A stretch of 64,000 bases of DNA from Xestospongia bergquistia (lineage: Eukaryota; Porifera; Demospongiae; Haplosclerida; Petrosiidae): positions 5,978,001 through 6,042,000 of the forward strand of contig OZ014420.1 in NCBI GenBank assembly GCA_963965975.1. Direction: 5' to 3'. Below are positions 33,001 through 63,029 of this stretch, in pieces. The notes below the pieces were generated by a model. It worked only from the letters and a program-made list of their open reading frames with translations. It ran no database searches and was not told the DNA's origin. A program made the position numbers and the translations under genes. Numbering within the stretch: the stretch's first letter is position 1; each line of letters starts with the position of its first letter.

Positions 33001-33781
33001 CTTGAGAGGGGTCTGGAACAGGTTTTTCCAAGGGGCCTAAAATAATAACAAAGAGACATGCTTTCTGAGGATCTGTAGTAAGAGAGTTAATTGTTTTGAG
33101 ATAGTTATGGAAATTAGTTTGAGTGAGTGGCTGTTTATAAATAAACTTGAGTTGAGAAAACTGACTAGTAGAATAAACATAAATTTGAAATGGTCTAGTT
33201 ATTGAACAGTGATGATAATTTAAACAAGAAGTAGGTTCTAAGGTACATTGTGATGTTATGTCAACTATGGACTGAAGTGGGTGTGGTTTTTGATTAGCTT
33301 CAGACAATGGAATGGGTGGAAGAATAATGATGGGTGGAGCTTCAGTGACAGACAGAGATGTTGGCATGTTATTACGTGTAGCAGCATATACTTCATGAGA
33401 GACTTTTGCTAACTCAGCTTGTGTTAATTGAACTTGTTTCCTACCATCATTAATCTGGTCCTGTAGTTTGTAGAGTGCTGCCTTGTGCTCCTCTGTCTCT
33501 TGGACAACTTTAACCCTTTTCTTCTCCAGTTCACGGAGCTCATTTCTTACTGATACTTGGATACGTTCTAACTCAGAGATATGCGTCTTGAGTTCATCTG
33601 GTTCTCCTTTAGTATTAATATCCAAAGCTTTTCGAATAGTTTTACGAAAATAAGGTGTTGTAGGTGCTTCTAGGATGTCTTGTGATGAAGACAGTAAGAT
33701 ATAAGGTACAAGAGTAGTGGAAATACATACACATACTGTAAGAGAAAATATAATTTTATATAGTCTACTTCTTGACATCAT
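30048..33781 (-). CDS. EXTL3: EXTL3, exostosin-like glycosyltransferase
   Basis: Golgi type II membrane enzyme that adds the first N-acetylglucosamine in heparan sulfate chain initiation (family knowledge). Six exons: 31748-33781, 31049-31176, 30861-31005, 30680-30808, 30497-30601, 30048-30152; 881 aa (human 919). Short cytosolic N-terminus, then a membrane anchor (about 8-30, [20 protein letters not shown]), a coiled-coil stem (about 58-130), a GT47 exostosin domain (about 190-510, [17 protein letters not shown]) and a C-terminal GT64 domain (about 620-881). The latter has [11 protein letters not shown], the metal-binding DxD in [23 protein letters not shown] and the conserved end [16 protein letters not shown]. 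The 5' exon is unusually long (2 kb) for this genome. It starts 105 bases after the syntrophin stop on the same strand. Confidence 0.96.
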
Positions 33782-33886
33782 GAGATCGATCTGGCCGTCG
33801 CCATTCCATCCAGTGAGTAAACTCCACCTAAAAGGAAAGCCTTCTCAAAAATTTTTGATATAGTAAAATTTTATAGTCAAAATCGT

Positions 33887-36868: not shown

Positions 36869-38484
36869 ATGCCTCCAAGTCTCTTACCATCAGATCGTCA
36901 TATGGGATTCAGTTCAGCTGGATCATTAGGTCGTGTGATTGTCTTCCTTCTGTGGCGTTTCTGGCGGATATGTGTAGCTGCTATTCTAATTATTGTCCTA
37001 CTTTATTGGATGTATGGAGGGGTATTGATACTGCTTGTCCTTTTAGTAACTCTCCTTGGTGCCCTTTATCACTACCAGGACTCTTTACTATATTACCCAG
37101 AACAACCTGAAAGTGCTAGAGTCTTTGTACAGCTACCGAGTTCTGTGGGACTTCCATACGAGACAATTTTCCTCACAACCAAAGACAAAGTTCAGATATC
37201 AGCCTATTTCATTAAACAACCTAATGATAGGGCCAGTTCTGCACCTACTTTGGTATATTTCCATGGCAACGCTGGTAATATTGGTCACCGATTAAACAAT
37301 GCTCAAGTGTTGTATCGTCAATGTGGTTTTAATATATTGTTAGTTGAGTATCGTGGATATGGGAAAAGCCAAGGTTCTCCAAGTGAATCTGGTATGACAG
37401 CACCAATACATACATGTACATTCATTATTGGGTGACAAGCCTCATCCATTTTGTGTTCATAAATACTACTTATTACAAGTTATTACATTTAGGACTATAC
37501 ATGGATGCCGAAGCTGCTATGGAGTTTTTAATATCTCGACGTGATATTGATAGAAGAAAGATTTTATTATTTGGTCGATCACTGGGTGGAGCTGTAGCTA
37601 TCTATCTAGCAGCATCTCCGATATATTGTGATGAGTATGTTATGAATGGATGGATGAATTCACTAATAGATTAATGGATGGATGGACAAATGACTTATTA
37701 TGATGTCATCATATATCTCTCTCTTCTCTTTTAGGGTGTTAGCACTAATAGTAGAGAATACATTTACTAGTATACCAAATATGGCTCAACTTATGGTACC
37801 AGGTGCTAGTTCATTACCGCGATTCTTTTATAAGAATAAAGTAAACAATAATTTTGAAAGATATGTTAATTTTATTGTTCTCTTATAGTTTTTGAGTTAT
37901 CTTGAAATACGTCGTATTAGAGCACCTACATTATTTCTCTCAGGTTTAGCTGATCAATTAATTCCATCACAAATGATGTTAGAACTATATCAAGTAAGAT
38001 GAATGAATGGATGGACAGATGTTGGTAGTGTTAGTATAAATTTTAAGTAACATCTTTTATTTCCTCTCATTTTAGTCGTGTGGTTCATCTCTTAAAACAA
38101 TAGAAACATTTCATGGAGGAACACACAATGGTACTTGGATGTGTTATGGATATTATGATCATATCAATAAATTTATGGCTTATGTAAGTAATACTGTGTA
38201 GTATAGTTCCTTTATTGATGTCATACTTTGTAATGTGAGAGGTTAAGTTATTAATGTTATTGTATGTTATTTTGTAGGTACTTCATTCTCGTTCTTTATC
38301 TGATAATTCTCTACTGACTACTAATGGAACAACTACAAATATTAACATTAATACTAACAACAATAATAGCAATAACAACAATAATACTGTTACTACTAAT
38401 TATAGGGTTAATCCCATTAATTTGTCAGGTGACTTACACTCTAACAGAGCTAATATTAATATACATGTTGATAAAAACACATGA
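36869..38484 (+). CDS. ABHD13: ABHD13, membrane-anchored alpha/beta hydrolase
   Basis: Serine hydrolase of the ABHD13/Bem46 group; vertebrate ABHD13 is reported as a depalmitoylase-like or orphan enzyme. Exons 36869-37391, 37493-37634, 37735-37840, 37889-37993, 38076-38183, 38278-38484; 396 aa (human 337). N-terminal membrane segments (about 28-75) precede [18 protein letters not shown]. Then come the oxyanion motif [12 protein letters not shown], nucleophile GRSLGGA, acid residue in [12 protein letters not shown] and catalytic His in GGTHNGTW. All are intact. Compared with the family the C-terminus is longer: an Asn-rich tail of about 40 residues encoded by an (AAT/AAC) microsatellite. Start: first Met of [14 protein letters not shown] partial copy lies at 52.7-53.6 kb. 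Confidence 0.95.
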
Positions 38485-38684
38485 CAATTGTGTATACTTT
38501 GTGTTTTTTAATTAATCTTTGTATTTGTTTGTATGTAATTATTATTAACAATTCCAATTATCAACTGGTTTAATATTATATGACAGCTAGTTCTAAGTTC
38601 CTGCAGGTGATGCATTAACAATACAGTTGAGATATAATATCGATCGATATCCTACAATCATTTTTTGTTGTATTTCTTCAATAC

Positions 38685-38865
38685 TAGTTACTTGACACAT
38701 TATGACCAATCTAGCCTGAATTGTAACTCAATTCTGTGAGGTTCTTGTGAGAATGGATAGAATTAAATAAATAAAGAATCTGTTCATAGTTAATATCAGA
38801 CAGTAGAATGGATGCACTCAACTATAGACTGCATGGTGTTGTGAAAGACCAACTGTTATGTTGTA
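38685..38865 (-). pseudogene. Fragment of an NLR C-terminus
   Basis: From ATTATGACCAATCTAGCCTG onward this follows the minus-strand NLR gene at about 54165-54320 (AGCCTGAATTGTA, TCTGTTCATAGTTAATATC, GAAAGACCAACTGTTA) with many substitutions and small gaps. It sits just downstream of ABHD13 and convergent to it, the arrangement also seen at 53.6-53.9 kb. No intact frame remains. Confidence 0.7.
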
Positions 38866-38910
38866 ATAGACTTAAGACAGCTAAACTGTCTAATTTTTGA
38901 AGTTTCTGAT

Positions 38911-38973
38911 AGAAATATAGTTTAAGACAATGTCTATATATCACATATAGACATTGTCTTAAAACTATATTTC
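38911..38973. ncRNA. Candidate hairpin RNA (29-bp stem, one bulge)
   Basis: AGAAATATAGTTTAAGAC... pairs with ...GTCTTAAAACTATATTTCT over about 29 bases with one extra T on the 3' side and a loop of about four bases. It could be a short fold-back repeat instead. No expression evidence is available. Confidence 0.3.
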
Positions 38974-39073
38974 TTTCCAGTAACAATCTATAGAATATTT
39001 AAAATACTGTAATATATTTAATGTATTTTAAGGACTTTTTAATGACTGTGTGTCAGATCAATTAAAATCAATT

Positions 39074-39540
39074 AAAATCAATTAAGAAATCAATTAATGT
39101 TGATCACGCGCGTGTGCTATTTCCCGCCAAATTTGTCACAAGTTTCTGGTGGCTGGTTGTCAAATTGAAGCATGACAGGATGTCTTGATGATAATAAAAG
39201 TTCTCCATTTTGCAAGCTTATATTATTAGCATTAGGTGAGTTATCTCTCCATCCATCATCTCTCGTCGATTTTTCAGTTGTTACAAGTCCTCTTTCTTTC
39301 TCCTTCTCTAGGACCACGTCATCGTTGGATCATCTCGTACTTCGTTGGATCGACTCGCCCTTCTCGTCGCTGGATCATCTTTTCTTTTCATTTTTGTCAT
39401 CATTATCTGTTTGTTTTCTTTTTTGTTTTTAACTTTTTATTTATTTATTTTTAATTTTTGTAAAATGACTTTTCTAATAAAAATTGATTTCTTATCTCTA
39501 GATCTCTTCGTTTCTACACGACTCAGCTTGGAAGTTCTTA
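39074..39540 (+). other. Unidentified stretch with E2F-like motif and exon-like unit
   Basis: TTTCCCGCCAAA at about 39120-39131 is a textbook E2F site. About 105 bases on, an AG-GTGAGTTATCTCTCCATCC unit has a good donor look and recurs at about 40050 (GTGAGCTATCTCTCCATCC, also followed by GTTGTTACAAGT). A short transcript with repeated untranslated exons is possible. No convincing protein is encoded. Confidence 0.3.
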
Positions 39541-39665
39541 CTGTGTTCTTGACTGTTCTTCTCTGATGTTCTTGACTGTTCTTTTGATGTTCTTGACTGT
39601 TCTTCTCTGATGCTTTTGACTGTTCTTCTGATGTTCTTGACTGTTCTTCTCCGATGTTCTCTGGA
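39540..39665. repeat. Short tandem repeat GTTCTTGACTGTTCTTCT
   Basis: Five to six imperfect copies of a roughly 21-24 base unit. The minus-strand frame rich in Glu-Gln-Ser-Arg-Thr comes from it. Confidence 0.85.
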
Positions 39666-39812
39666 TGAAAAAGATGAGTCGCTCTCCGTGTCATTGGACT
39701 CTTTCCTGTCTTCCTTCAAGCCTTCTTTCCTCTTCTTTTAATTTTATTTTTTTTTATTTTGGGCTATTCAGCCCATACACTATACACACACTCATACAAA
39801 CTCTATTAATCA

Positions 39813-39885
39813 TCTCTCCCCTGCCGCCTGGCGGCCTAAAAAAAAATTTTAAAAATATCCTAGGCCGCCAGGTGGCGGGGGAGAG
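39813..39885 (+). ncRNA. Candidate GC-rich RNA hairpin with G-U wobbles
   Basis: Arms 39813-39837 and 39861-39885 (CTCTCCCCTGCCGCC... and ...GGTGGCGGGGGAGAG) pair along all 25 positions in a plus-strand RNA, two of them as G-U. The loop is 23 A/U-rich bases. The GC content is far above its surroundings. The shape resembles a pre-miRNA or other structured RNA; transcription is unproven. Confidence 0.4.
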
Positions 39886-40619
39886 CTCTGATCTTCTAGA
39901 GTGCGTGTGTGTGTGCTGTGTACGTGTGTGTGTTGGTGGTCCTTTTTCACTTCCTCTGTCTCTCTTCACTCTCTATCCATTCATTGTCACTACCAGTTCA
40001 GTTATGACTACTCTTTTTCTTTCCCTGCAGGAGCAGCTCTGTTGAAGAAGGTGAGCTATCTCTCCATCCATCCATCTTTCATCCTTTCTTTAGCAATCCA
40101 GTTGTTACAAGTGACTTTCTTTTTCTTCCTCTATGTTCTCTACTTGTGGACTGACTGGACGTTTGGAGACTTTTCAAGTGCTGAGACTGTCTTACTTCAA
40201 TTTTTTTTTATTTTCTTTTTATTTTCTTAATTTTTGTATTTTTATTTTCTTTTTATTTTCTTAATTTTTGTAAAATTATCTTTTTCTTCAAAAACATTTT
40301 TCACTATAGTTTGTCAAAAGTCAATTATCTTAACTTTGGTTTAGAATATTTTAAATTAATATCACGAATTTTGAAGTTCCAAAAATTCTAGATTATTTAA
40401 TATATTTTTAACTTCTTTCATGAAAACTGAATTAGTTTAGAATTCAATTTTTTATCTCAATAACCATTGTATTATTTATGCATGATCCATCTTATTGTTG
40501 TTTTACAAGAAAAGATACTATATTTATTTTGTAATAATTAATTATGAATCTATTTTTTAATATAAATCTATTTTTTAATAATTAATTATAAATCTATCAG
40601 TATTTTGCTATTCTTGTGA

Positions 40620-41220
40620 GCCGTGTGCTGATGATATTATTTTCCCGCCAATATGGTAGGTCACACGTTTGCCGTTCCTTGCTAGGTGCGTGCAGCTATG
40701 ATATTTTCCCGCCTAAGCAATGTGTACTCGTTAGTAATGGATTCTCTGGAGACTTTTTGTTTGATTAGAATCTCGAGATCTTCACCAGACAGTTTAATCC
40801 TGTTTCAGTGGTTTTTTTTAATTTTTTAAAATCAAGTTCCTTTAGATGATTATTTATATTCTGCTTTTAATCATTGAATTAATATTTATTTATCATTTAA
40901 CTTGTTTTTTGTTTGTTTAAAAGTTTAGTATTCTCACAACATATCAAAAAACTGGAATAGATATTTTATTTGAAAGCTATATTTTACCATGTTGTCAGTA
41001 CATTCCTTATTGAAACAAAACCTCACATTCTATCAACTGAACAGTCTTATGACATCTTATGGGACTGTTTGTCTCATACAACTGCTGCGACAAAACATTA
41101 TGTCTTCGCAATGTGTACTCGTTAGTAATGGATTCTCTGGAGACTTTTTGTTTGACTAGAATCTCGAGATCTTTGATATTGTATTCATACTTTGTACTAG
41201 TTTGAAATGATTTACTGCCA
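40620..41220. repeat. 65-base direct repeat and two more E2F-like motifs
   Basis: The segment starting GCAATGTGTACTCGTTAGTA at about 40729 returns nearly unchanged at about 41106 (one or two differences in the first 65 bases). TTTTCCCGCCAA (about 40642) and TTTTCCCGCCTA (about 40703) resemble E2F sites. No gene was recognised. Confidence 0.6.
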
Positions 41221-42030
41221 TCCATACATTAAATAATCGATTTTTTTTCAAAATTTTAATTTACTTGCAATACACATTTTTTGTGCTGACTCTAACACCA
41301 AGAAATCCTATGATTAGTATAACTTCTGTAAGCTTAAAATTAGTTTATAGTAAATTATATCATTCTCTAAGTAATGAAACATCATTGTACTTTTGATTTT
41401 TTTCTTTTGGCTTCAAACTCATGATATGAAAACTCTCAACAAGTTACCTTCATAACAGCTCCATTCTTTGTAGTATCTGTAATTAACTACAGGATATGTA
41501 TTTGGAATTGTTGTCTATACTATCTTTAGTCCTTGGTATTGTTGGCAAGAAATGGACAAATAAGTTGTTAGAAATGATGAATTAGCTGTCAATAAGTTGG
41601 ATGATTTGTTAGGATGGAAAATTTGTTACAATGGATGGATGACTTTAGTATAGATGGATACTTTGTTTGAATGGATGACATAGTATGGACAGATATTTCT
41701 TAGTATGGATGAATTGTTAGCACAGTTGCTAGTGATGACTGTTGATAAATATATATTCTATTTTATTAGTACATTTAGATCATTTGTGTGTTATTGTTGT
41801 ATTATAAAATGGACACTAATAATGGAAAATTAATAGTATCGGTTAATAATAGTTATCCATTGTCCATTGTCTACACATCTATCTCTATTCATCTATCTGT
41901 CTGCTTCTTTTTATTCTCCCATTCATTATTTTTTAGGTTCTCCAGATGTAATTAAGAGCCAAAATGATTTGCAGATTGCATGTGACTATTAGAGACCAGA
42001 CCAGTTGTTACAAAGTATCATAGTTGGTCA
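41221..42030. other. AT-rich stretch without recognised features
   Basis: It contains short ATGGATG-like scattered repeats (41570-41720). No open frame or RNA gene is seen. Confidence 0.5.
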
Positions 42031-42175
42031 GGTTTGAGTGTACACCTCCAATAGAGCTAGTATTAATAAATGATAGTGTGTATCCTCATTATTGTTTGTA
42101 ATTATTACTAATAATTCCAATTATCAACTGGTTTAATATTATGTACAGGCTAGTTCAATATTACAGGTGAAATAT
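42030..42175. repeat. Copy of the ABHD13 3' flank
   Basis: AATAATTCCAATTATCAACTGG with its surroundings (AGAGCTAGTATTAATA before, ACAGGCTAGTTC after) matches the sequence just after the ABHD13 stop (about 38445-38600), and more weakly 53690-53750 and 59710-59770. It marks a duplicated segment edge. Confidence 0.65.
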
Positions 42176-42177
42176 AT

Positions 42178-43830
42178 ACCACAAATGGTATGTTCCAGTG
42201 CAGTAAGTATTACAATACAGCCATCATCATTCCCAGCACTCAACTAGAACATCAACTACAGAATAAAAATGAATTAAGATGTATAAAAGATCAATCTTAC
42301 ATGAGTAGTGATTAGAGAAGTCCAGTTATCAATGTCTCACTATAAAATTAAAGGAAATAGTTTAGTACAAGATTGTCAAAATAATGATAGATCAAACTTA
42401 CAATCTAAGTTATCAGAAAATATTAACATTATGTACACCAATATAGTAAATCAAAGTCCTACTAAAAAAATATTATTATAACATATAACTTACAATAGTC
42501 ATCAGTTAGTGGAGATTGAATCATCTCAAACAGTGTGACATTAACATGTCCATTCTATTATAAATTGTACAGTTCAGACAATTGTACTATTTAATAAATT
42601 AACTTACAGTAGATATACTAACAACAAATATCATCAGATCATCTCTTATTAGTTATTAATAGACCTACTAAATGTAACAGAATTTGTTTTGTTCTAACAT
42701 TATAGTTTATATATAACTCACAACAATTAGAACATTATATCATTATACTATAGAACAATAAATAGTTAGTAAATTATTAGTAAATAATAAATATAACTTA
42801 CATATAGTATATCATAGGACTATACTAGATCTAAATCATCTCAAGTTGGTGCAGAACATGTTACTATAATATTTTAAGAGAAAGTAGTAAAAAATTCTAT
42901 TAACTTACTAGCAGCAGAGCACCAATCTCCAATAGATCGGTAACAGTCCTTTATAGTTTAGCACAAGATTGTAAGTTTCAAATTAATAGTAGATCAAACT
43001 TACAATCTAAGTTATCATAAAACATTAACATTATGTACACCTATATAGTAGATTAAAGTCCTCCTAAAAAATTAAAACACATGTTTAGTACAGAGCTGTC
43101 CATATTATTCTAACACATAACTTACAATAGTCATCAGTCATGGAGATCAGATCATCACTACAAGTGACCATTAACTTCCTATTATAGAACAAAATAGTTC
43201 AGTAGACAATTATACTATTTAATAAGTCATCTTACAATTAGGTATATTTACAAAATATCATCACATCAGTAGTGATAGAATTTGTTTTGTTCTACTATTA
43301 TAAGTGTGACCATTAAACTGTACATCCTATTATAAATTGCACAGTTCATTCAGTAAACAATTGTACTATTTAATATATTAACTTACAATAGGTATATTAA
43401 CAAATGTCATCAGATCATCTCTTATTAGTTATTAATAGACCTACTAAATGTAACAGAATTTGTTTTGTTCTAATATTATAGTTTATATATAACTCACAAC
43501 CATTAGAAAATTATATCATTACACTATAGAACAATTAATAATTAGTAAATTAGTAATAAATAATAAATATAACTTACATATAGTATATCATAGGACTATA
43601 CTAGATCTAGATCATGACAAGTTGGTGCAGAATAAGTTACTATAATACTACAAGAGAAGAAATAATAAAAACATTTATTTATCATGTCTATCTATTAACT
43701 TACTAGAACCAGAACATTGATCTCCAATAGATCAACAAACAGTTCTAATCCAAGTAGCCCAAAAAAGGTATCATTTAAATTGTTTACAAACATCTCCAGT
43801 AGACTAGAAAACAACAGTCCTACTATAAAA
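42178..43830 (-). repeat. Higher-order repeat block 1 with embedded splice sites
   Basis: Fourteen-odd diverged monomers of about 110 bases. On the minus strand each has an exon-like part (25-75 bases, often starting after TAG and containing a GAGATGATCT-like core) ending at GTAAGTT/GTAAGAT/GTGAGTT, followed by an intron-like part of about 50-60 bases. Monomer types recur in the same order (called A to G here), giving two super-units of about 0.8 kb. Donors appear on the plus strand as AACTTAC at about 42400, 42490, 42603, 42800, 42905, 43005, 43121, 43381, 43573 and 43698. The exon-like parts have stops in most frames, so if transcribed the product is non-coding. Confidence 0.8.
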
Positions 43831-43879
43831 TGAAAATAGTCAAAACAGTGAAATACAATTTTCTTGCTTTTTTCAAGCA

Positions 43880-44575
43880 TCTTAGATTTTAATTTTCATT
43901 GAGATATTTTTTTTCTAAACATCTTATGATTTGGTTTGGCTTATAGTAGGTGTCTGTAGTTATTCTAGCATTGAAGGTTTTACAAGACAGCTGGTACTCT
44001 CCTTTAAAAACCAGAAGATGTCTGAACCAAGTAAAATCCTCAATGCCTGTAAAAAACCTCATAGATGTCTGTAAAGAAACCAAGTAAAATTGTTAGTGTC
44101 AGTAAGATTATGTCTGTAGAGGTAAACAAAAGAAAAATGTTAATACCAGTATAAAAATGAAACTCCTAGTTGCCAGTAGAAAACAAGAAAATCCATGAAA
44201 ATTCTTGAGATACCAGTAATGTTCCTAGATGCCAGTGGAAAACAAGAATGCCAGTAAATGCCAAATCAAATAATGGAAGTGGTGGCAGGAATGTTGTGTC
44301 AAGTTGATATTTAGGAAATGGAATCAGAGAGTTTAATGTTTAGGAGGTTGAGATCAGTATTATAATACATAAAGTATAGATGTGTTCTGGACAAATAAGT
44401 CATTGACTAAAATCATTCATGTCAATGAAAAACAATAAATAATTTTGATTCCAGTGAGAAACAAGAAATCCTGTAGTTAAAAGTAAACCAAGTAAGCCAA
44501 ATCCTAGATGCCAGAATAATGATATAAGTACAAAACAAGAGATGACAGTAAGACACAAGAATTTATATTGCAGGA
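43880..44575. repeat. GATGCCAGT-based degenerate satellite, block 1
   Basis: Units near 40-50 bases built on CTAGATGCCAGTNNAAAACAAGAAATCC. Similar sequence follows the second splice-site repeat block (48.03-48.3 kb). Confidence 0.7.
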
Positions 44576-45330
44576 TTGTGTAACAGAGAGAGGGTTAACA
44601 ATTTAGAATCAATATTATATCACACAGGGGGTTTACTATTTGACACAAGGGTTAACATACACAATACAGGCTTATATGACATATATAGAATGATAACATT
44701 ATATGGTCACTGAGGGTTAACAATTCAAGATTAATTACAGACACACAGAAATAAACAATTCATAACATGCACAGAGGATAAGTCAGGAAAATATGACAGA
44801 GACCGAGTGAGGGTTAACAAGTCAGGATCAAGTTATACCACACATGGGGGGGGGGGGGGTTGACAATTTAGGATTATGTGATAATACACAAGGGGGTTAA
44901 CAATAAAGGTATTTTTATACAACAGATAGTTAATATTTCAGGAAATGCAACTACAGCACATAGGGAGTTGACAATTTAGGATTAAATTAAGACACAAGGG
45001 GGTTAACAATAGAAGTTTATGACACGACACAGAAGGTTAATATTTCTGGATTATACAACAGAGGATTAACAAGTCTGGATTATAAACCCACACAAGGGGA
45101 ACAATAATGAAAAAAGGTGTTAATAATTCAATATTCCAGACAGACACAAGTGACAAAGGGTTACATAAATGTGCATAGAGGATCTGACATTAGGAGAACA
45201 ATAATCAAAAAAGGGATTAATATTTTAAGATTATATAACAACACAGATATAAAACATCCAAGACAGACACAAGAGAGTATTTCTGAATTATTATGACACA
45301 TACAAAGGGTTTGAAGGATGAAAAAGAGAT
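44576..45330. repeat. GGTTAACAAT-based degenerate satellite
   Basis: Irregular units of about 40-60 bases centred on AGGGGGTTAACAATTTAGGATTA, about twelve copies. It includes a G-run at about 44848-44859. Confidence 0.75.
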
Positions 45331-45779
45331 TAATTAAATATGTATGGACGTAATAACATCAGGTTTAATATTAAGATGGTCGATCACTGTTATTTGATAT
45401 TTATATATGCCTACACAAAAGACAAAGATGAACAACGCAAGACCAGAGGTATAATGATATTAGAAAGTGATGACAAGACAATGTGTGTAACCTGTTGTTC
45501 CATATCGAAATCCACCTATTGATGCCTGAGACTAGTGAACCATCTTCAATCACATTATGATATCCATATGAACAACCCACAAAGTGATGCTTGACCATAT
45601 TCAAGATACCCCATCAACCTCAAGATCTAAGCCAAGCCACAACCAGTAATCAATGTCTAATAATTCTCCAGACCCTCAAGACAAAACCAGTTATTAACAT
45701 CCAGTGTTAGTTGTGGATAAACCTACTAAAGAGACAAAACTAGTTAGTATAATGTATATATAGTATAGTAAATGTATTA

Positions 45780-48010
45780 GTATACAACCTCATTATCAGC
45801 AGTTATAATGGTACTCAACTAGAACATCAACTACAGAATAAAATGATTAATTGTAATAAAAGAGGGCATATGAAAGATCAATCTTACATTGAGTAGTGAT
45901 CAGAGAACTGCACAAGATCATCTCCAGTCCAGTTATCAATATTTCACTATGAAATTAAAGGAAATAGTACAAGATTGTCAAATTAATAATAGATCAAACT
46001 TACAGTCTAAACCATCAGTAAAGATTATGTACACCTATATAATAGATCAAAGTCCCTAAAAAATGAAAAAACATGTTTAGTATAAGACTGTTATATTATT
46101 ATTACAGATATAACTTACAATAGCCATCAGTTAATGGAGATTAGATTATTAATCTACTAGAGCGACAAAGGGTCAGTAGTATTGTACTTATAGCACAGTA
46201 TAAGTATTATAACACAGCCATTATCATTCCCAGTACTCAACTAGAGCATCAACTACAGAATGAAAATGAATTAAGATGTATAAAGATCAATCTTACATTG
46301 AGTAGTTATTAGAGAGCCTCACTAGATTATCTCCAGTTCAGTTATCAATGTCTCACTATGAAATTAAAGGAAATAGTTTAGTACAAGATTATAAGTTTCA
46401 AATAGATCAAACTTACAGCCAAGTTATTAGAGAACATTTAACATTATGCACACCTATATAGTAGATCAAAGTCCATCTAAAAATTAAAACACATGTTTAG
46501 TACAGGACTGTCCATATTATTATAACATACAACTTACAATAGTCATCAGTTAATTGAGATCAGATCATCACTACCAAGACTAACTGTGATCATTATCCTA
46601 GGCCTGTCAGTCCTATTATAAAAGTCCATTTAGTAAACAATTGTACTATTTAATATATTAACTTACAATAGGTATATTAACAACAAATGTCATCAGATCA
46701 TCTCTTATTAGTTATCAATAGATCTACTAAATGTAACAAAATTTGTTTTGTTCTAATATTACAGTTAATATATAACTCACAACCATTAGAACATTATATC
46801 ATTATACTACAGAACAATTAATAATTAGTAAATTAGTTAATAAATATAGCTTACATATAGTATATCATAGGACTATACTAGATCTAAATCATGACAAGTT
46901 GGTGCAGAATAAGTTATTAAAATACTACAAGAGAAGAAATAATAAAAACATTTATTTATCATGTCTATCTATTAACTTACTAGCAGCAGAACATTTATTT
47001 CCAATAAAACTGTCCTATTCTAAAGTAATCATACCCTTAAAAAGGTCATTTAAATTGTTGAGTTTATAACAGCTCTCAATCAGTTGATCATCATCTCCAG
47101 TAGACAGTTATAAAGGATACTCAACTAGAACATCAACTAAAGAATAAAGATGATCTGTTAGAATTAAAACAAGTATTTAAAAGATCAATCTTACAAAGAG
47201 TAATGATCAGAGAATTGCACTAGATCATCTCACTCCAGTTATCAATGTCTCCTTAAAGAATTAGAATTTGAGAGCTGTAATAGATCAACATCTAGTCCAA
47301 TCATCAATGTGTCTCACTATAAAATTAAAGGAAATAGTTTAGTACAAGATTGTCAAATTAATAATAGATCAAACTTACAGTCTAAGCTATCAGTGAACTT
47401 CAACATCATTATATACCAATGTAGTAGATCAAAGTCCATCTAAAAATTTTGAATATGTTTAGTACAGAACTGTCCATATTATTATAATGTTTAGTACAGA
47501 ACTGTCCATATTATTATAACATAACTTACAATAGTCATCAGTAAATGGAGATTGAATTATCTCAACCAGTGACCATTAACTTGTCAATCCTATCATAAAA
47601 TAGAAAGTCCATTTAGTAAACAATTGTACTATTAATATATTAACTTACAATAGGTATATTAATAAATGTCATCAGATCATCTCTTATTAGTTATAAATAG
47701 ACCTACTAAATGTAACAGAATCTGTTTTGTTCTAATATTACAGTTTATATATAACTCACAACCATTAGAACATTATATCATTATACTACAGAACAATAAA
47801 TAGTTAGTAAATTAGTAATAAATAATAAATATAACTTACATATAGTATATCATAGAATCTAGATCATCACAAGTTGCTGCAGAGTAAGTTACTATAATAT
47901 TTTAAGAGAAAAATATTTAAAAAATTCTATTAACTTACTAGTAGAACACTCATTCCAATAGATCAGGTAAACATTCTTATTCTAAAATAGTCCTAAAAAT
48001 GTATCATTTA
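45780..48010 (-). repeat. Higher-order repeat block 2 with embedded splice sites
   Basis: Same monomers and same type order as block 1: a partial super-unit (45.78-46.14 kb), then two full ones (46.17-47.04 and 47.10-48.01 kb). Minus-strand donors at plus-strand AACTTAC or ATCTTAC near 45885, 46000, 46113, 46294, 46410, 46527, 46660, 46850, 46976, 47190, 47378, 47523, 47641, 47836, 47933; AACTCAC (GTGAGTT) near 46774 and 47754. Acceptor-like TTTTATAG or TTTAG precede each exon-like part. Super-units are much more alike than monomers, which is typical of higher-order amplification. Confidence 0.8.
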
Positions 48011-48029
48011 AATTGTTGAGTTTATAACA

Positions 48030-48300
48030 ACTCTCAAGGAAAATTCTGAATGCCAGTCAGAAAAAATCCACAATAAAATCCAATACACATGTAAAAAAAT
48101 CCTAGAAAACCCCTAGATGCCAGAGTAAAATGCTAAATGTTAGAAATAAGCAAGAGAAATCCTGATGCCAGTAAAAGAACACAAGAAATCATAGATACCA
48201 GGTGAAACCTTAGATGCCAAATAAATTCCAGACAAGGATAAATCTAGATGTTTGTTAAACCAAGAAAGCAGCTTCTAGTCAACAATCATAGAAGTTGGTA
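48030..48300. repeat. GATGCCAGT-based degenerate satellite, block 2
   Basis: Second, shorter run of the 43.9 kb repeat, in the same position relative to the splice-site array. Confidence 0.6.
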
Positions 48301-49480
48301 TGTTTGAAAAAACCCAAAAGAACAATGATAATCCTTAAGCCATATTAGAATAATTATACCAGTAGAGAAGTAGTACAAAGATAACAAATCTATCTCCAGT
48401 AGATTATCAAAATCATTCAAATAGAAAAACCATCTTTATTTGCTATAGTACCAGTATTAAATAAAAGATCTAGGGAATATGTAACCAATTAAGCAAGACA
48501 ACGAGAACAAGACAATGTAGATATTATAGTACATGAACTCTGTTATAGTACATGAACTCTATGGGTCATTCATAACAAAACTATGAGAAATATAAGATAA
48601 TAATAGAACAATTACAAACTAATTGACATAGAACAATATGATATAACAGGAAGTTGTAAACAATATATAACACAATGTTAACAGTGTTTGGAGATTTGAG
48701 TTGTATGATAATATGTACAGAAGCTAATACTGAACAAAAGTCAGATTAGGTACCACAGTTGTAAGAGAGATTGTGTAACAAGACAAAACCATTATTTAAC
48801 AAAAACTCTGATAAATTACAGAGTTTTTAACAAGTCACAGTAGATGACGTGGAGAGATCAATTACAAGTGTTATTATTAAACAATAACTCCAATAATGTA
48901 CAAGAGTGACAATAGATCATAACACAAGACAGAACACAGGAGTTATAATATTGAATATTAAACAAAATCAAGATTAACATTATTGCACATAACATATTTA
49001 CATAAAACAGCAACACATTCAAGAGATGATAATAATAATAGATAGAAACACAGGAGGTATTACTAGATCAAACACTAATAATGAACACTTCTCACAACAG
49101 TTTCAGGAGATATTAACACAACAGGTAAAGAAAGGATTATTAGATAAAAACATTATTATAGCACCAGTATTCTAACTGGTATACACACAAGAGCTATTAT
49201 TAGGAATCATTAAATGACAATGTTATAATATAAAACAAAGTAATGAAAATCTAATGTGACAAATAAATAACAAGACTTTTCAACAAAGGTACCAGTGAAT
49301 TGTAGACACTAGTAGATATAGTGTGAATAGAAGATTTACCAAACTATATGATTTTAGTGTATGAGGTCACAAAAGGTTTGTTAGATAACAGAATTTAAGC
49401 AAAAAAATACATATACCAATAATTCACCAACAGATTACAAAGAGAGATTACATAAGAGATAGTTTTATAAGAGGTTATAT
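48301..49480. other. AT-rich gene-free stretch
   Basis: No long frame in six frames. Small local duplications (for example TTATAGTACATGAACTCT twice near 48530). Nothing else was recognised. Confidence 0.5.
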
Positions 49481-50200
49481 GTACATGTCACAGGACTAGG
49501 TTGTATGAATTGTAATACAAGACATTATATGGTTGGTATATGTACATGTCACAGGACTAGGTTGTATTGTATTATGAGGTTGGGTATTGAGACTTTTGAA
49601 TGTTTTAGGTTGTATAATAACACATTTTGTTGAGTACTCTTGAATATACATGTCAGAGGACAACTTTATACCATATATAAAACATTATGTGACATGAACA
49701 TTTCACAGGATTAAATGTAACATAAGGGTCTCCAAAAGTTCATATACAGGGCTCTGTTGTATCATAAGACATTATGTAGTATGGGCAATAATATCATAAA
49801 ATGCTATGTGGTGTGAGTATTAAGATCTTTGTGTATAAATATGTCAAAAGGTTAGTATATGTGTATGTCACAGGGATAGGTATCAGTGTGGTATGGGTAA
49901 TAAGATGTTTGTGTAGAAGTGTGTTTGTCACAAGAATAGGTCGTATCATAGGACATTATAAGATGGTATATAAGTATGTCAAGTGTTAGTACATGTATAT
50001 GTCACAGGAGTAGGTATCAGTGTGGTATGGGTAATAAGATGTTTGTGTATAAGTATTGTCAAAAGGTTTGTATGTGTTTGTCACAGGAATAGGTCATATC
50101 ATAGGACATTATAAGATGGTATATAAGTATGTCAAGTGTTAGTATATGTGTATGTCACAGGGGTAGGTTATATCATAGGACATTATACATGTCACAGGGC
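49481..50200. repeat. Satellite with TATGTCACAGG core
   Basis: About eight irregular units of 60-110 bases with TATGTGTATGTCACAGG, TAGGTCATATCATAGGACAT and GATGGTATATAAGTATGTCA segments. Confidence 0.8.
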
Positions 50201-50509
50201 TGTGTTTGGGTGCTAACAGATTTGTATATGTAGGATAAATATTATATAATGTAGGTTTTGGGAATACTATAAATGGGCAACAAGAGTGGATGTATTTACT
50301 TGTTATAGACTCAATACATTTGTCATGTACATGTGATAGATACATAGATTATATGAGTATCTGAATGTAATGAATTATAAGAAAGTAAGTTCCAAATATA
50401 TGTCTGAATGTACATGTTGTAGGGCTCATAAGAGGTTGGTATACGTAGATGTTGCAGTGTGAGAGGATTAACAAAGGGTGTGTGTATGTATGATTAATAA
50501 AGGATATGT

Positions 50510-50700
50510 ACAGATACTTGTTATAGGATGTACATGTTGATTACATATATGTTATAGGATGTAAATGTTGATTACATGTATGTTATAGGATGTACCTGTT
50601 TATCATATATATGTTATAGGATGTACATGTTGATTACATATATGTTATAGGATGTACATGTTGATTACATATATGTTATAGTATGTACATGTTGATTACA
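50510..50700. repeat. About 31-base tandem repeat
   Basis: Six copies of a unit with GTTATAGGATGTACATGTTG and GATTACATATAT, nearly identical. Confidence 0.9.
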
Positions 50701-52200
50701 AGAGTTGAATATCAATGGAGACGTTTTATAACATAGTAACAATATAGGATAATGGTTACTGAACTAGTACAACAGGGCATTTGACCAATAGATATTACAA
50801 AGTGAATATGTGATATAGTCTTCTAAATAATGGTACAGTATATGACCTGAGGTTGTTTAACAACTAAACAGTACAAGATATGGGTCATATTTCTATCAGT
50901 AATCATTTACACATTAAGTGGCAATTAAGATATGAAAGCTACACAAGTATATGACATAATGTTTGTGGATTAAGAGAAAATTTAATTGTGTAAATTAAGG
51001 GTAATTAAAATTATTATCAAAGGTAGCATAAACAACAATTCTAGTACATGACTTGTTACAACACTGTAGAATTATACTATTGTATATTACAACAAGGACA
51101 TTACAAGAGGGTTGTGAGTATGTTTTAAAATTAGACTCTTGGATCCACAGAGTTCATATACTCAACAAGGAGGCTCTACTAGTCATTATAGTTGACAAGA
51201 AGACAACTCCTCATTAGCTAGACTGGTTAAGAACTACAACCAAGAGGAAAGCTAGCCTGCTATGTCAGAACTGTTCAAATAGTCAGCATTATTACTCTTA
51301 AGCAGCTGTACATATATATATTAAGTGGTTGAGTACTATAAAAGCCTCTTTATTACAGACATAAGTGCATACAACTGTTGGGAGGAGTGATGGATGGTGC
51401 TAGTGAGCCACCTAGAAGCTCCATATTCTATACAAGTGTCTAGGTATATATAATTGGCTTCCAATATTGTTCTCAACACGAAATACAACTACTCAGCTAC
51501 TGGGGCCATTTAACGCAATGCTCCATGCTTATAGTCAGCTGTGACATTCCAGTTCTGTTTAAGCAAGTATTTAAACGATGACAGCAAAATCCCCTCGTAA
51601 ATAATACACAAGGTTCTCAAGTCTAGACAAGTATTTAAATAATGACAGCAAAAAGCTCTTGTAAATAAACAAGATTCTTAAGCATATATATATTACCACT
51701 TTGGCAAACTAAGGTTGACTTAAACTGAGCTAGAACTAGACCTAACTAAAACACCATAGAGGTAGGCTGCCACAAGACGTCAAAGGTCTCCAAAGTCATA
51801 AGGTAGTTAGAAGAGGCTGTATATATATGTGAAATGACAGTAACTATCTGGGTCCAGAGAGTTGAAAAGCTCAGGGTTAGGCTTTACACGTACACACATG
51901 GTCTACGTTTACTCTGACCTGATTACTTTCTCGTTATGTGCTGCAACAAAATCGTATTTTCTTTGTCATCGGCCTCAGCTTGACTGCGTTTTTCTACATG
52001 AGAGGTGAGCAAGAACTGAAGGTATCTTGACTGGAGGCGATGAACTGTAGACAGGAGCAGCAGTTATGCCTTTCTTCTTTAAAAGATGTCGGCCCTGCAG
52101 AAGCACCCATCCAACTGGCGTAGTTGTCTTGAAGAAATGAGGCAGTCTAGCAAAAATCTAGTATTTTTAGAAATAAAAATTGCCTCCACTAAAGCGGTTT
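50701..52200. other. Stretch of higher sequence complexity without a clear gene
   Basis: From about 51.1 kb the sequence loses its repeat character. It has a 60-base direct repeat (AAGTATTTAAACGATGACAG near 51565 and a similar copy near 51632), a TATAAAAG at about 51342 (+) and TATATATAC-like boxes. 51.95-52.14 kb is GC-richer, with short open frames on both strands (minus: PVGWVLLQGRHLLKKKG; plus: MSALQKHPSNWRSCLEEM). These may be a degraded transposase or a first exon. I could not identify it. Confidence 0.35.
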
Positions 52201-52207
52201 GCTTAAC

Positions 52208-52269
52208 TGAGCATGCTCAATTCTCTAAAATTGGCGCCGTTAAAGCAAATGTTAAACTGAGCATGCTCA
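52208..52269. promoter_or_regulatory. Pair of TGAGCATGCTCA palindromes
   Basis: Exact 12-base palindromes at 52208-52219 and 52258-52269, within a longer repeat (TTAACTGAGCATGCTCA / TTAAACTGAGCATGCTCAG), with a GGCGCC palindrome between. The layout suggests a paired binding site for a dimeric factor; the factor is unknown. Confidence 0.35.
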
Positions 52270-52739
52270 GTTCATTTACTTTATTAATATAATAATCATG
52301 CATGATAAGATCCTAATAAAGTAAACTGATAGTGAATTGATATTCTATCTGTTAGTACATTGTCCATCTGTCTATCAGCCATATTTTTGTCAGTATGATC
52401 TTAAACACCAATTCTGTTATGAACTCCTAATTTAGATTTATATAAACGTTGAATGACAAGTTATAGAAAACAAATACAATTTAATGTTAATTATCATGAC
52501 TATAAAATAATTAATAATTATGTGACATGTACAGGCTAGTCTATTATGTACTACCAGATATATATTTAATTAATAACCACTGTTTATTATTTCCTATTAT
52601 TATCAGCAAATTTTGAAACCAATTTGATATATGGAATCCTCAAAACTATTGAACTACATAATCCATACAAATAAGCAACAGTATGTTTGTCACCATAGCA
52701 ACAATTGGTTAAACAACAATGTGTCTGTTATTTGGTTGA

Positions 52740-53650
52740 TGACTATAGATGGATCTGTAGCAAGTTATCTAGCAGCATCTCTGTTATGTTGTGATGAATA
52801 TGTTATGAATGGATGGATGAATAGGTAGATAAATGGATGGATGGATACACCAATTGATGAATGGATGAATGACTTATTATAATGACATCATGTATCTCTC
52901 TCTTCTCTTTTAGGGTATTAGCACTAATAGTAGATAATACATTTACTAGTATACCACATATAGCTCAACTTATGGTACCAGGTGCTAGTTCATTACCGCG
53001 ATTCTTTTATAAGAATAAAGTAAATAATAATTTTGAAAGATATGTTAATTTTATTGTTCTCTTATAGTTTTTGAGTTATCATGAAATACATCGTATTAGA
53101 GCACCTACATTATTTCTCTCAAGTTTAGCTGATCAATTAATTCCATCACAAATGATGTTAGAACTATATCAAGTAAGATGAATGAGTGGATGGACAGATG
53201 GTTGGTAGTGTTAGTACAAATTTTAAGTAACATCTTTTATTTCCTCTCATTTTAGTCGTGTGGTTCATCTCTTAAAACAATAGAAACATTTCATGGAGGA
53301 ACACATAATGGTACTTGGATGTGTTATGGATATTATGATCATATCAATAAATTTATGGCTTATGTAAGTAATACTGTGTTATATAATTCCTTTATAGATC
53401 ATAGATGATGTCATTATACTTTATAATGTAAGAGGTTAAGTTATTAATGTTATTATATTTGTTATTGTGTAGGTACTTCATTTTCATTCTTTATCTGATA
53501 TCCTCTACTAACTACTAATGGAATAACTACAAATATTAAACATTTAATACTAACAATAACAACAATAATACTGTTACTACTAATTATAGGGTTAACCCCA
53601 TTAGTTGGTCAGGTTAGTATTAATATACATATTGATAAAAACACATGATA
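52740..53650 (+). pseudogene. Partial ABHD13 duplicate with introns retained
   Basis: Matches the end of exon 2 and exons 3-6 of the gene at 36.9-38.5 kb, with the introns between them and the 3' flank, at very high identity. Exon-equivalents: about 52747-52798, 52914-53019, 53068-53172, 53256-53362, 53474-53535. Exon 1 with the membrane anchor, the Ser nucleophile motif region and most of exon 2 are absent. The exon 2 donor reads AT instead of GT, and exon 6 is frameshifted before the Asn-rich tail. It is therefore a segmental-duplication pseudogene, not a retrocopy. The catalytic Asp and His exons are still open. Confidence 0.9.
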
Positions 53651-53863
53651 ATATGTGTTTTAATTGCTGCTCGTTATTGTTTCCATTTGTTTATTAATGA
53701 TTTCAACTATCAACTGCTTTAATAATCATGTGTAAACTAGTTCAAAGTTCCAACAGAAGGTAATAATACAATAACATTACAGCTGAGATATAATAGTAAT
53801 ATACTACAAACATAGTTTGTTCAAAAGTATCAGCTCTATTGTTTTAAAAATTTAACAGAAAAG

Positions 53864-56800
53864 TCATTCTATCAGTGGCAGTTGCTCTATGCTGGTCAAT
53901 GTCTTCTCTTGCGATTTAAGAGCATACAGGACTGGCCTGCATCCAACAATTCTAACATACTGAAGAGTGGGATGATGAAAGACAGTTTGACAAAAGTCTT
54001 GTGTTTCTTTGATCCAATTAGGCTGAGACAATTCATCGTGAACACTACGGCAGTTTATACGGAGAAGTTTCATAGTTGTATGTGACTGTAACATTTTAGT
54101 AATAAGAGGTAGTCCCTGTTCATAGAACAATGTTTGTTGTATTTTTTCATAACTACAGTCATTAGACACACATGACTTATCTAGCCTGAATTGTAGTTCA
54201 AGTTCTGTGATATGAGAGTGGATAGTATTAAAGAAAGTTTTTAACTGTTCACAGTTGGTATTTGACAGTGGAATGGGTACACTCAGCTCCTTTAGACTGG
54301 TGTTGTGTGAGAGACCAGTTGTTAGGAATGAGAGGTAATCACTGGAAATGTCATCAATGTAGATGATAATCTCAAGGTATTCTATTGTGTTGTTTTTTTC
54401 TAACATGTCTTGTAAACTAGGACCAATATTCTTTAAAATGTTATTATTGCCTGCCTTTACTCTTAAAGCCTTAAGTGTAGTATTACTCTGTAGAATAGTA
54501 AATAGTTCAATAACACTCTCAGCTGTGTCTAGTGATAGTTGAAGTTGTTGTAGATTAGGATGATATTGAAATAAAGGAGGTAGTGGATGTGGTTGATGTA
54601 GTATAACACAGTTCAGTCCTTTGATATGTTGATGAAGTAATGGTGTCTGTTTTCTAATTTCTAGAGCGGTGAGTGGTGTGTTCTCTTTTACCAAATCCAG
54701 TGATGATATTGGCTGGTGATTAGAAAACACATTTAGCTCATTTAGCTTAAGAGCTTGTAGCATGCTATTTTCTTCAAATAATTGTTCACTTTTTTCTTGA
54801 TTAACTGGCTTTACAAGTTGTGACAGAAAGTCCACTGCACGTGAATATAATTTAATATATTTGTCTTTTGTTATTATTGTAACGAGACTGCTAACAACAT
54901 CAACAATATCAGTAGAGAGTGATTGTACAATGTGAGAATGGACAACTTCTAATCGTTCTGATTCATATAATATAAGATTAATCCATAAAGTATCCTCTAC
55001 TTCAGATGCAGTTATCTTGTCTATCTGTACATATTGTGTCCCATTATAAAAGTCTATAATGAAACATAGAACTTTCATTTGTCTTAGCTGTATTAACTCC
55101 AACAATAGTAACTGAGTGATATCCACACATAATTTCCAACGATTATTTATTTCCAATGTAATATAAAGCTCTTGAAGGTTACAAGAAAATGATGACTGCA
55201 ATAATGTTGCCATTGCCTCTTTACTCATATCGTCATAATTCCACAATGTTAATTCTAATTTTAGACACCTAACATTATTGCTTTTAAGTGCTTTAGTGAG
55301 GAGTTGTATTGCCTGTCCATTCAATATTCCCAAGTCCAAATGATTCCATGTTGTGTTAGAATTATTGAGGAAATATCCAAGACACTGTATGTCAAACAGA
55401 GATAATGTACGCCTATCAATGTAATGAAGACATAGTGACTGGTTCTTAATAGATTGTGAAAATATTTGGCATAATTTTGTGTTCTGTGATTCATACAAAA
55501 GCTGAAGAAGTAGGTCTATTTGTTTATAGCATTGCAGACTTTGATGATTAATATGTATCTTAGGAATCTGCTTGAAATGAGAGTAGTAACACTTATCAAA
55601 TCCAAACAATTGTCTTCTTTTACATTGCAGGTCAAGTTTTTTGTTAAAATATTGTTGATATCTCTCATGTTTAAGGTGAGATAGACCTACCACAAACCTC
55701 AGACACATTTGAAAGTGATCATTATCAAAATGTTCTGTAAACACTTCCTCTGTCTTCTCATACTTAGCTATCCACCATGCTGCTAGAAATTCCTGGATAC
55801 TCAAGTCAAGAAACTGATAAATGTCTTCATTATAAATATTGAATGATGTTATTAGTCCTAGATAGCTTTCTTCCTCAGACAGATCAAGAATTTTATCCGA
55901 AGAAAATGTTCTTGGACTGTTTTCTTTTAAATTGAGATAAGCAAACTCACAAATCGCTTTGAAAGGTGTATCTAAGTTTGATGGTAAATCGTGAAGACTA
56001 AGCAACTTATCTTTGGTTTCAACATATCTTCTGATAGTTTGTAGGATAAAATTCTCATATAATTCTGTGAGTGTTGTTGGTAACTGTGCATTTAACTCAC
56101 GGTAAACTGAAATCACTATGGAACAGATTATAGGTATATAACACAATGACTGGATATCACCTCGTACTTTAAGATCATGCATGAGTTTCTCAGCTAGATG
56201 TGGTTCTTTTTCTAGTGTTGTTTTCATTACTGCCTCAATTTCTTTCTCTAAAAATCCCATAACTTCATATCTAGTAATTGATGGTATTTCTAACAGAGAA
56301 AAGGAGGCATAGCTACGAGAGGTAACAATTACTGAACATTTGGCTAACATCTCTCTACGAATTATTCTAGCTGCTAGTGAGGATTGTCTGAGATCTATAC
56401 TTAATTCATCCCAACCATCAAAAATTAGCAATGCTCTTTCTCCTTCTGTATCTGTCATTTGCTTTGCAATTTCAAAGACTTTTGAACTCTGGCAAACAAA
56501 CAAATCTACTACCTCTTTAGCCTGTGCAACCTTGTCATTTCCAAGAGGACAGTAAAGTACAATGATATATTGTTCTTTAGCCATACTCAACAGTTCATGA
56601 CAGAGTGTTGTCTTTCCAATACCAGGAGGACCTTCAACTACTGCTCTAAAAGGCTGATATACAGTATCACCAGTGATAGTATAGCTTAACTTTGGCCTAA
56701 GGACATCCTGGATATTTACCACGCCGTAGGTATATTGAGTACTTGTAATTTTGTCAACTTGTCCCCTTAGCGTATACCACTGTTTCTGTACTATTGTATA

Positions 56801-63027: not shown

Positions 63028-63029
63028 CT

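What the first reader, a model, noticed from the sequence alone, without database searches (positions are those of the whole stretch)
42178..48010. Array of about 30 micro-exon-like repeat units, each with its own donor and acceptor
Seen: two blocks of a higher-order repeat in which every monomer (about 110 bases) carries, on the minus strand, a TAG acceptor, 25-75 bases of exon-like sequence and a GTAAGT-like donor. The intron-like gaps are about 50-60 bases, the usual intron size of this genome. All exon types share a GAGATGATCT-like core, so they come from one ancestral exon-plus-intron unit. Super-units (about 0.8 kb, types A to G in fixed order) were amplified later. Exon parts hold stop codons, so a product would be a multi-exon non-coding RNA whose exon number grows with the repeat. 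Known splicing rules support that such units can splice; that they do is inference.
Basis: partly seen in the sequence, partly recalled or inferred. Interest (0 to 1): 0.85.

Follow-up and report, generated by a model that had tools for sequence, protein, structure and literature searches.

The report
Intron-packed noncoding gene family flanking centromeres
The repeat is a copy of a widely duplicated noncoding gene with a tiny intron every hundred or so bases; many copies elsewhere in this genome flank what look like centromeres and mostly point towards them, which hints at a centromere RNA, although no one has yet shown that the RNA is made.

Summary
The splice-site array is real. On the minus strand, 45801-48010 holds a chain of 17 intron-like units (44-63 nt) against a mean of 2.4 and a maximum of 6 in 100 shuffles; 42178-43850 holds 9 against 2.0, maximum 7. 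The exons are noncoding. Introns called on dispersed copies keep all 65 splice-signal bases in the C10 lineage, while 87 of 799 other bases changed, so splicing was probably selected; the 12 young dispersed copies show no such constraint. The claimed shared exon core fails (2 of 7).

The array is a module of a roughly 10-kb segment, often joined to Integrator-subunit-2 exons. Sixty promoter-like copies lie on 13 contigs. Gaps between copy zones hold a shared 143-bp satellite: 8 of 13 gap probes, 0 of 10 controls. Of 41 copies on contigs with a located satellite, 37 point their RNA strand at it; probe placement favours this.

Best reading: a pericentromeric, intron-dense noncoding RNA family, nearest in working to fission-yeast dg/dh. 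The window's own copy lies on C10, where 8 probes found no satellite. Transcription is untested.

The parts
42178..43850 (-). intron array block 1 (incomplete super-units, partly eroded)
   Evidence: 9 chained introns against mean 2.0, max 7 in 100 shuffles
45801..48010 (-). intron array block 2 (about three super-units)
   Evidence: 17 chained introns against mean 2.4, max 6 in 100 shuffles
47786..47839 (-). predicted intron, 54 nt, GTAAGT donor, TTTACTAAC branch-like, TTCTGTAG acceptor
   Evidence: homologous intron intact in 12 of 14 C10 units
47706..47759 (-). predicted intron, 54 nt, GTGAGT donor; preceded by a 26-nt exon
   Evidence: 12 of 14 C10 units intact
47590..47648 (-). predicted intron, 59 nt
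   Evidence: 16 of 16 C10 units intact
47317..47378 (-). predicted intron, 62 nt
   Evidence: 12 of 13 C10 units intact
47137..47194 (-). predicted intron, 58 nt
   Evidence: 6 of 7 C10 units intact
46925..46980 (-). predicted intron, 56 nt
   Evidence: 8 of 12 C10 units intact
46807..46854 (-). predicted intron, 48 nt
46727..46780 (-). predicted intron, 54 nt
46613..46666 (-). predicted intron, 54 nt
46477..46537 (-). predicted intron, 61 nt
   Evidence: 9 of 12 C10 units intact
46356..46416 (-). predicted intron, 61 nt
46253..46296 (-). predicted intron, 44 nt
46056..46118 (-). predicted intron, 63 nt
45947..46003 (-). predicted intron, 57 nt
45831..45887 (-). predicted intron, 57 nt
43851..45800 (.). 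spacer module of degenerate short repeats (AGATGCCAGTAAA-like and GGGTTAACA-like), no introns beyond chance
   Evidence: read; introns 1 on minus, 3 on plus; 45396-45797 is conserved in many dispersed copies
48011..50700 (.). tandem-repeat modules towards the promoter-like block (about 74-bp units at 49920-50187, 31-bp units at 50519-50700)
   Evidence: homologous and collinear in many dispersed copies
51001..52400 (-). conserved promoter-like block upstream of the array on the minus strand (promoter role inferred)
   Evidence: collinear in dispersed copies; 40 scored genome matches to 51716-52367 from 85 candidates
52208..52269 (.). two palindromes TGAGCATGCTCA at 52208 and 52258
   Evidence: the 16-mer ACTGAGCATGCTCAGT occurs 177 times in the genome, control 0

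Best explanation
The array is the intron-rich part of a noncoding gene: a transcript that starts at or above the promoter-like block near 52.3 kb and runs on the minus strand through tandem-repeat modules into cassettes of seven small exons separated by 44-63-nt spliceosomal introns. The whole unit belongs to a segment family, often with Integrator-subunit-2 (INTS2) exons on its upstream side, that spread by tandem and inter-chromosomal duplication through the zones beside a 143-bp satellite, the likely centromere. SHOWN: splice-signal architecture, noncoding exons, past selection on splice bases, dispersal, neighbourhood of the satellite on nine contigs. INFERRED: transcription, splicing, promoter position. 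MOST LIKELY WORKING (inferred, about 0.25 on its own): the RNA acts in or near pericentromeric chromatin, where many closely spaced introns recruit spliceosomes and so help to mark the transcript for nuclear retention or small-RNA and heterochromatin machinery, as the introns of fission-yeast dg/dh RNA do. Most dispersed copies are now drifting neutrally; the window copy belongs to an older C10 lineage whose splice bases are still better kept than the rest.
For: Intron chain far above shuffles and other window blocks. The consensus of 12 copies is a clean 7-intron chain. Main against C10 consensus: 0 of 65 splice bases changed, 87 of 799 others; within 22 C10 units GT/AG differ at 12 of 377 against 780 of 9379. 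No coding capacity. Collinear modules in the fetched loci. INTS2 exons on the same strand upstream: PF14750 E 1.9e-13, 5.4e-15 and 3e-11, PDB 7cun_B E 6.6e-8 and 5.2e-10. 60 promoter copies on 13 contigs. Gap probes 8 of 13 satellite, controls 0 of 10; the listed satellite matches lie at C1 18.425-18.701, C2 12.294-12.827, C3 4.206-4.465 and C9 4.898-5.099 Mb. 37 of 41 promoter copies point at the satellite, 13 of 15 arms by majority. Intron-bearing centromeric ncRNA is known to promote heterochromatin in S. pombe (PMC5322907, abstract and part of the Discussion).
Against: No RNA data. The 12 young dispersed copies lose GT/AG as fast as other bases (10 of 356 scored bases, against about 3%). 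No spliced retrocopy was found (partial scans). The window copy itself is on C10, where 8 of 8 probes found no satellite; C12, C13 and C14 also failed at one probe each. Probes were placed between oppositely oriented zones, so the 37 of 41 is partly built in; on C7, placed without that pattern, only 1 of 3 copies points at the satellite. With runs of like orientation collapsed, the genome-wide orientation bias is 28 of 40 pairs (1161 of 20000 shuffles). That the satellite is the centromere is inferred from its form and sharing, not from CENP-A.
Confidence: 0.68

Rival explanations
1. Dead repeat: the array is a relic of a once spliced gene carried passively in pericentromeric segmental duplications, with no transcript and no function today.
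For: Neutral decay of splice bases in 12 young copies; 10 of 26 INTS2-exon matches have in-frame stops; degraded fragments in L034; broken splice sites in some C10 units (75 of 88 scored introns intact).
Against: Within the C10 lineage GT/AG are kept better than other bases (12 of 377 against 780 of 9379); the array unit is somewhat more alike among copies than its neighbours (about 94-97% against about 90-96% by 200-bp window), though gene conversion could do that.
Confidence: 0.35
2. The array is the 3' untranslated part of the gene upstream (INTS2-like copies elsewhere, an NLR here), spliced onto its message.
For: INTS2 exons lie upstream on the same strand in several copies; in the window a NACHT protein frame ends at 53864 on the same strand.
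Against: A conserved promoter-like block separates INTS2 from the array; no INTS2 exon matches the window; the upstream gene differs between copies; the other listed NLR matches lie on C1, C10, C11 and C14, mostly away from the arrays.
Confidence: 0.12
3. A non-autonomous mobile element of about 10 kb (for example an LTR-type derivative without genes) spread the array.
For: Many copies, several with long direct repeats about 10-11 kb apart (L023 918 bp at 92.4%, L017, L019); 93-98% identity of the unit among 12 dispersed copies.
Against: The direct repeats include INTS2 sequence in L019 and fit tandem duplication; copies lie in limited zones rather than genome-wide; no terminal motif or target duplication was established; retained introns argue against copying through the spliced RNA.
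Confidence: 0.12
4. Host gene for small intronic RNAs (snoRNA or microRNA), like the SNORD115/116 or C19MC arrays.
For: Tandem noncoding exon-intron units resemble such host genes (recalled).
Against: No Rfam match in 38000-56000 at gathering scores; introns are 44-78 nt; seven consensus monomers fold no better than shuffles by usual standards (z -1.92 to +1.56).
Confidence: 0.04

Closest known systems
Fission-yeast dg/dh pericentromeric noncoding RNAs (S. pombe)
   Same: Noncoding, intron-bearing transcription units in repeated segments beside the centromere core, inverted between the two arms (the inversion recalled); intron needed for full H3K9 methylation (PMC5322907).
   Different: dg has a single typical intron, here 7 per cassette and up to 17 in a block; 143-bp satellite core instead of unique cores; animal host; no siRNA or chromatin data here; segments carry INTS2 exons.
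Tandem-exon lncRNA host genes (SNHG14/SNORD116, MEG8; recalled)
   Same: Repeated noncoding exon-intron units on one strand.
   Different: No small RNA found in the introns; introns are minimal-size; many dispersed loci instead of one imprinted locus.
Pericentromeric inter-chromosomal segmental duplications (as in human; recalled)
   Same: Gene fragments and flanking DNA copied among the pericentromeric zones of many chromosomes.
   Different: Here a noncoding intron array with selected splice signals travels with them, mostly in one orientation relative to the satellite.
Schistosome micro-exon genes (recalled)
   Same: Many very small exons in series.
   Different: Those encode proteins with exon lengths in multiples of three; here exons have stops and lengths of all three phases.

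Membership tests
dg/dh-type pericentromeric intron-bearing ncRNA | Lies beside the centromere core | tested here: met
   For the family: satellite found between copy zones on 9 of 13 contigs probed (C1-C9). Not met for the window's own contig C10 (0 of 8 probes). That the satellite is the centromere is inferred.
dg/dh-type pericentromeric intron-bearing ncRNA | Mirrored orientation of the units on the two arms | tested here: inconclusive
   37 of 41 copies point at the satellite, 13 of 15 arms, but probe sites were chosen from the orientation pattern; all-copy test 70 of 86 pairs, 8 of 20000 shuffles; collapsed 28 of 40, 1161 of 20000.
dg/dh-type pericentromeric intron-bearing ncRNA | Typical spliceosomal introns in noncoding RNA | tested here: met
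   Sequence level only.
dg/dh-type pericentromeric intron-bearing ncRNA | Transcribed, processed to small RNAs, nucleates H3K9 methylation | not testable with these tools
   No RNA or chromatin data available.
snoRNA/miRNA host gene | Structured small RNA in each intron | tested here: not met
Protein-coding micro-exon gene | Exons open in a shared frame | tested here: not met
   4 of 7 consensus exons closed in all frames; window exons 3 of 13 and 1 of 5 short exons with an open frame.
LTR-type or other mobile element | Defined ends with terminal repeats and target-site duplication | tested here: inconclusive
   Long direct repeats in L017, L019 and L023, explicable by tandem duplication; ends not mapped.
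Pericentromeric segmental duplication | Multi-kb homologous blocks with gene fragments in pericentromeric zones of several chromosomes | tested here: met

The most novel reading that the evidence does not exclude
A metazoan counterpart of the dg/dh system: a family of pericentromeric noncoding RNAs, transcribed from the arm side towards the centromere satellite, in which dozens of minimal introns serve as repeated spliceosome landing sites that mark the RNA and its chromatin; intron number, free to grow by unequal exchange, tunes the strength of the signal.
Probability: 0.18. Interest if true: 0.93.

Novelty: new variant of a known kind. Interest (0 to 1): 0.72.

Why it matters
If the RNA is made, it would be an animal case in which introns of a noncoding RNA, rather than its exons, are the conserved feature beside centromeres, and it would make the role of the spliceosome in pericentromeric chromatin testable outside yeasts. 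Independently of that, a shared 143-bp satellite between mirrored segment zones gives a concrete candidate for the centromeres of this genome; a search for papers holding demosponge, centromere and satellite DNA together found none in the held library.

Tried and rejected
NLR association: the array is not a regular companion of NLR genes (44 of 207 candidates scored). Rfam search of 38000-56000: nothing at gathering scores. Coding reading: rejected. Small-RNA host: disfavoured. Spliced retrocopies: one junction pattern gave 1 hit with 2 mismatches, its control also 1 per strand; a search with the joined consensus exons (40 of 381 candidates scored) gave one match across the whole query, C10:3133045-3133465, which on reading still contains an intact intron and rearranged pieces and is not a retrocopy; a C4 match proved to be a chimeric exon. 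BEL/Pao integrase positions did not mark the zones. A first strict splice score was too harsh for AT-rich DNA. An early orientation count on mixed hit types gave 54 of 79 pairs, 170 of 5000 shuffles. INTS2 exon constraint: one 70-aa exon, three pairs, pooled pN/pS 0.41, too little to decide between gene and pseudogene. The first prediction note named seven sites as likely satellite (3 of 7 hit: C5, C6, C9; missed: C4, C10, C13, C14) and three as less sure (2 of 3 hit: C7, C8; missed: C12). The C4 hits came from two further probes after the first missed. The C14 control at 5.0 Mb lies inside the C14 copy zone.
Full report
OBSERVATION. The stretch 42178-48010 was read. On its minus strand a chain search for GTRAG-type donors followed 42-80 nt later by YAG, with credit for branch-like and pyrimidine-rich sequence, finds 17 introns in 45801-48010 and 9 in 42178-43850; 100 dinucleotide shuffles give 2.4 (max 6) and 2.0 (max 7), and the plus strand gives 3 and 3. 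The 2-kb spacer between the blocks has 1 (minus) and 3 (plus). Over the window, 117 other 2-kb blocks reach at most 6, the array 15. A stricter first score found only 1 and 5. Block 2 introns are 44-63 nt, block 1 introns 45-78 nt, two or three of the latter doubtful.

WHAT IS REPEATED. A consensus of 12 related units from other chromosomes is 864 bp with seven introns of 52-65 nt and exons of 51, 64, 26, 58, 59, 50 and 59 nt; four of the seven exons are closed in all frames, and spliced open frames are shorter than shuffle means. The repeat is therefore of the cassette; its exons may or may not have one origin.

WAS SPLICING SELECTED? Introns were called on the dispersed consensus only and then looked up elsewhere. 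Between that consensus and the C10 consensus (22 units: window 6, L026 6, L027 7, L028 3) 0 of 65 splice-signal bases differ against 87 of 799 others. Within the C10 units, GT/AG differ at 12 of 377 against 780 of 9379 (Fisher 1e-4; units are not independent), and 75 of 88 scored introns keep GT..AG. In the 12 young dispersed copies, however, GT/AG differ at 10 of 356 scored bases, the same as exon (132 of 4565) and intron (113 of 3690). So splice signals were kept over the longer divergence but most dispersed copies now drift.

THE LARGER UNIT. A first search matched 115 places from 40 scored of 290 candidates. Fetched loci share, in one order, the array, the spacer module, the repeat modules at 48-50.7 kb and the block at 51.0-52.4 kb. 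The 12 dispersed units are 93-98% alike, the window's best unit 81-83% to them. To the right of the block, several copies carry minus-strand exons of Integrator subunit 2 (PF14750; PDB 7cun_B); one exon gives 26 matches from 26 candidates, 10 with in-frame stops, another 33 matches from 43 candidates. No INTS2 exon matches the window at E 0.1; there an NLR-like NACHT frame ends at 53864 instead. Long direct repeats about 10-11 kb apart in L017, L019 and L023 fit tandem duplication or terminal repeats; I could not decide. Array length differs between loci: about seven units near 220 bp in L020, about 1.07-kb units in L022, chimeric exons in L057.

THE PALINDROME AND THE ZONES. The block holds two TGAGCATGCTCA palindromes (52208, 52258). 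The 16-mer ACTGAGCATGCTCAGT occurs 177 times in the genome and its reversed control never (the first 100 rows, on C1-C3, were listed). Of 20 palindrome sites fetched, 3 had a long match to the promoter block; the others share only the palindrome region or short stretches, so a second family uses the same motif. Two promoter searches (40 of 92 and 40 of 85 candidates scored) give 60 distinct copies on 13 of 21 contigs. Zones are narrow on some contigs (C2 1.3 of 16.1 Mb, C1 0.64 of 28.2) and broad on others (C10 2.9 of 7.3, C14 3.3 of 5.9).

THE SATELLITE. On C1, C2 and C3 the copies form two zones with a gap. A 3-kb probe in each gap is wholly one 143-bp tandem repeat, about 91% alike and shared by the three contigs. 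I then wrote down ten further sites and ten controls. Probes of 200 bp hit the satellite at C5, C6, C7, C8 and C9 and missed at C4, C10, C12, C13 and C14; controls 0 of 10. Together 8 of 13 against 0 of 10 (Fisher 0.0027; the ten new ones alone 5 of 10, 0.033). Further probes hit on C4 at 4.40 and 4.70 Mb and missed at seven more C10 sites. A satellite search (40 of 2897 candidates scored) lists matches on C1 18.425-18.701, C2 12.294-12.827, C3 4.206-4.465 and C9 4.898-5.099 Mb, inside the gaps. Among fetched loci up to L058 and the window, only L019 holds a piece of it.

ORIENTATION. On the nine contigs with a located satellite, 37 of 41 promoter copies have the array strand running towards it, 13 of 15 arms by majority, median distance 0.46 Mb, 34 within 1 Mb; the 19 copies on C10, C12, C13 and C14 were left out because no satellite was located there. 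Probe sites were mostly chosen between oppositely oriented zones, so this count leans towards the result; C7, chosen otherwise, gives 1 of 3. Using all 60 copies and no satellite, 70 of 86 mixed pairs have the minus-oriented copy on the left (8 of 20000 shuffles); with neighbouring like copies collapsed, 28 of 40 (1161 of 20000).

WORKING AND RANKING. What is shown is a noncoding, intron-dense cassette under past splice selection, duplicated in pericentromere-like zones. Transcription, the promoter and any chromatin role are inferred. The closest worked-out system is fission-yeast dg/dh RNA, in which removing or mutating the intron lowers H3K9 methylation and stalled spliceosomes are proposed to recruit RNAi factors (PMC5322907: abstract, and the first part of the Discussion). 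For the window's own copy the pericentromeric setting is not shown. Dead-relic is the strongest rival.

LITERATURE. Searches for sponge with INTS2/Integrator, noncoding tandem-repeat RNA in sponges, sponge centromeres, centromeric introns, pericentromeric satellite RNA in sponges, demosponge centromere satellite (no papers), repeated noncoding exons and pericentromeric transcripts with introns were read as listings; none listed this family. Only PMC5322907 was opened.

Noticed in passing
window 53864-56968 and 59879-63028, minus strand: Two long NACHT-containing (NLR-like) frames; 49 matches in the genome, many in a C10 cluster at 4.6-6.05 Mb.
   Followed up: partly
C1 18.48, C2 12.46, C3 4.40 Mb (L059-L061) and probes on C4-C9: 143-bp satellite shared by nine contigs, the likely centromere repeat; the L059 monomer itself contains GTAAGT once per unit.
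   Followed up: partly
L040-L047, L049-L053, L055: A second family of sites with the same AACTGAGCATGCTCAGTT palindrome but other flanks, interspersed with the array family; C1 sites on the two sides of the satellite look like reverse complements.
   Followed up: no
C1 1.40-1.51 Mb (L036-L038): A separate cluster of the palindrome far from the C1 satellite, with no promoter homology found.
   Followed up: no
C1 13.1-14.2 and 16.2 Mb: More diverged INTS2-exon matches (53-60%), several with stops; one fetched locus (L034) has array fragments beside it. Unusual multiplication of an Integrator subunit gene.
   Followed up: partly
window 31715-33844, minus strand: A 709-aa open frame that looked to me like an exostosin-type glycosyltransferase (recalled, no family search made).
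   Followed up: no
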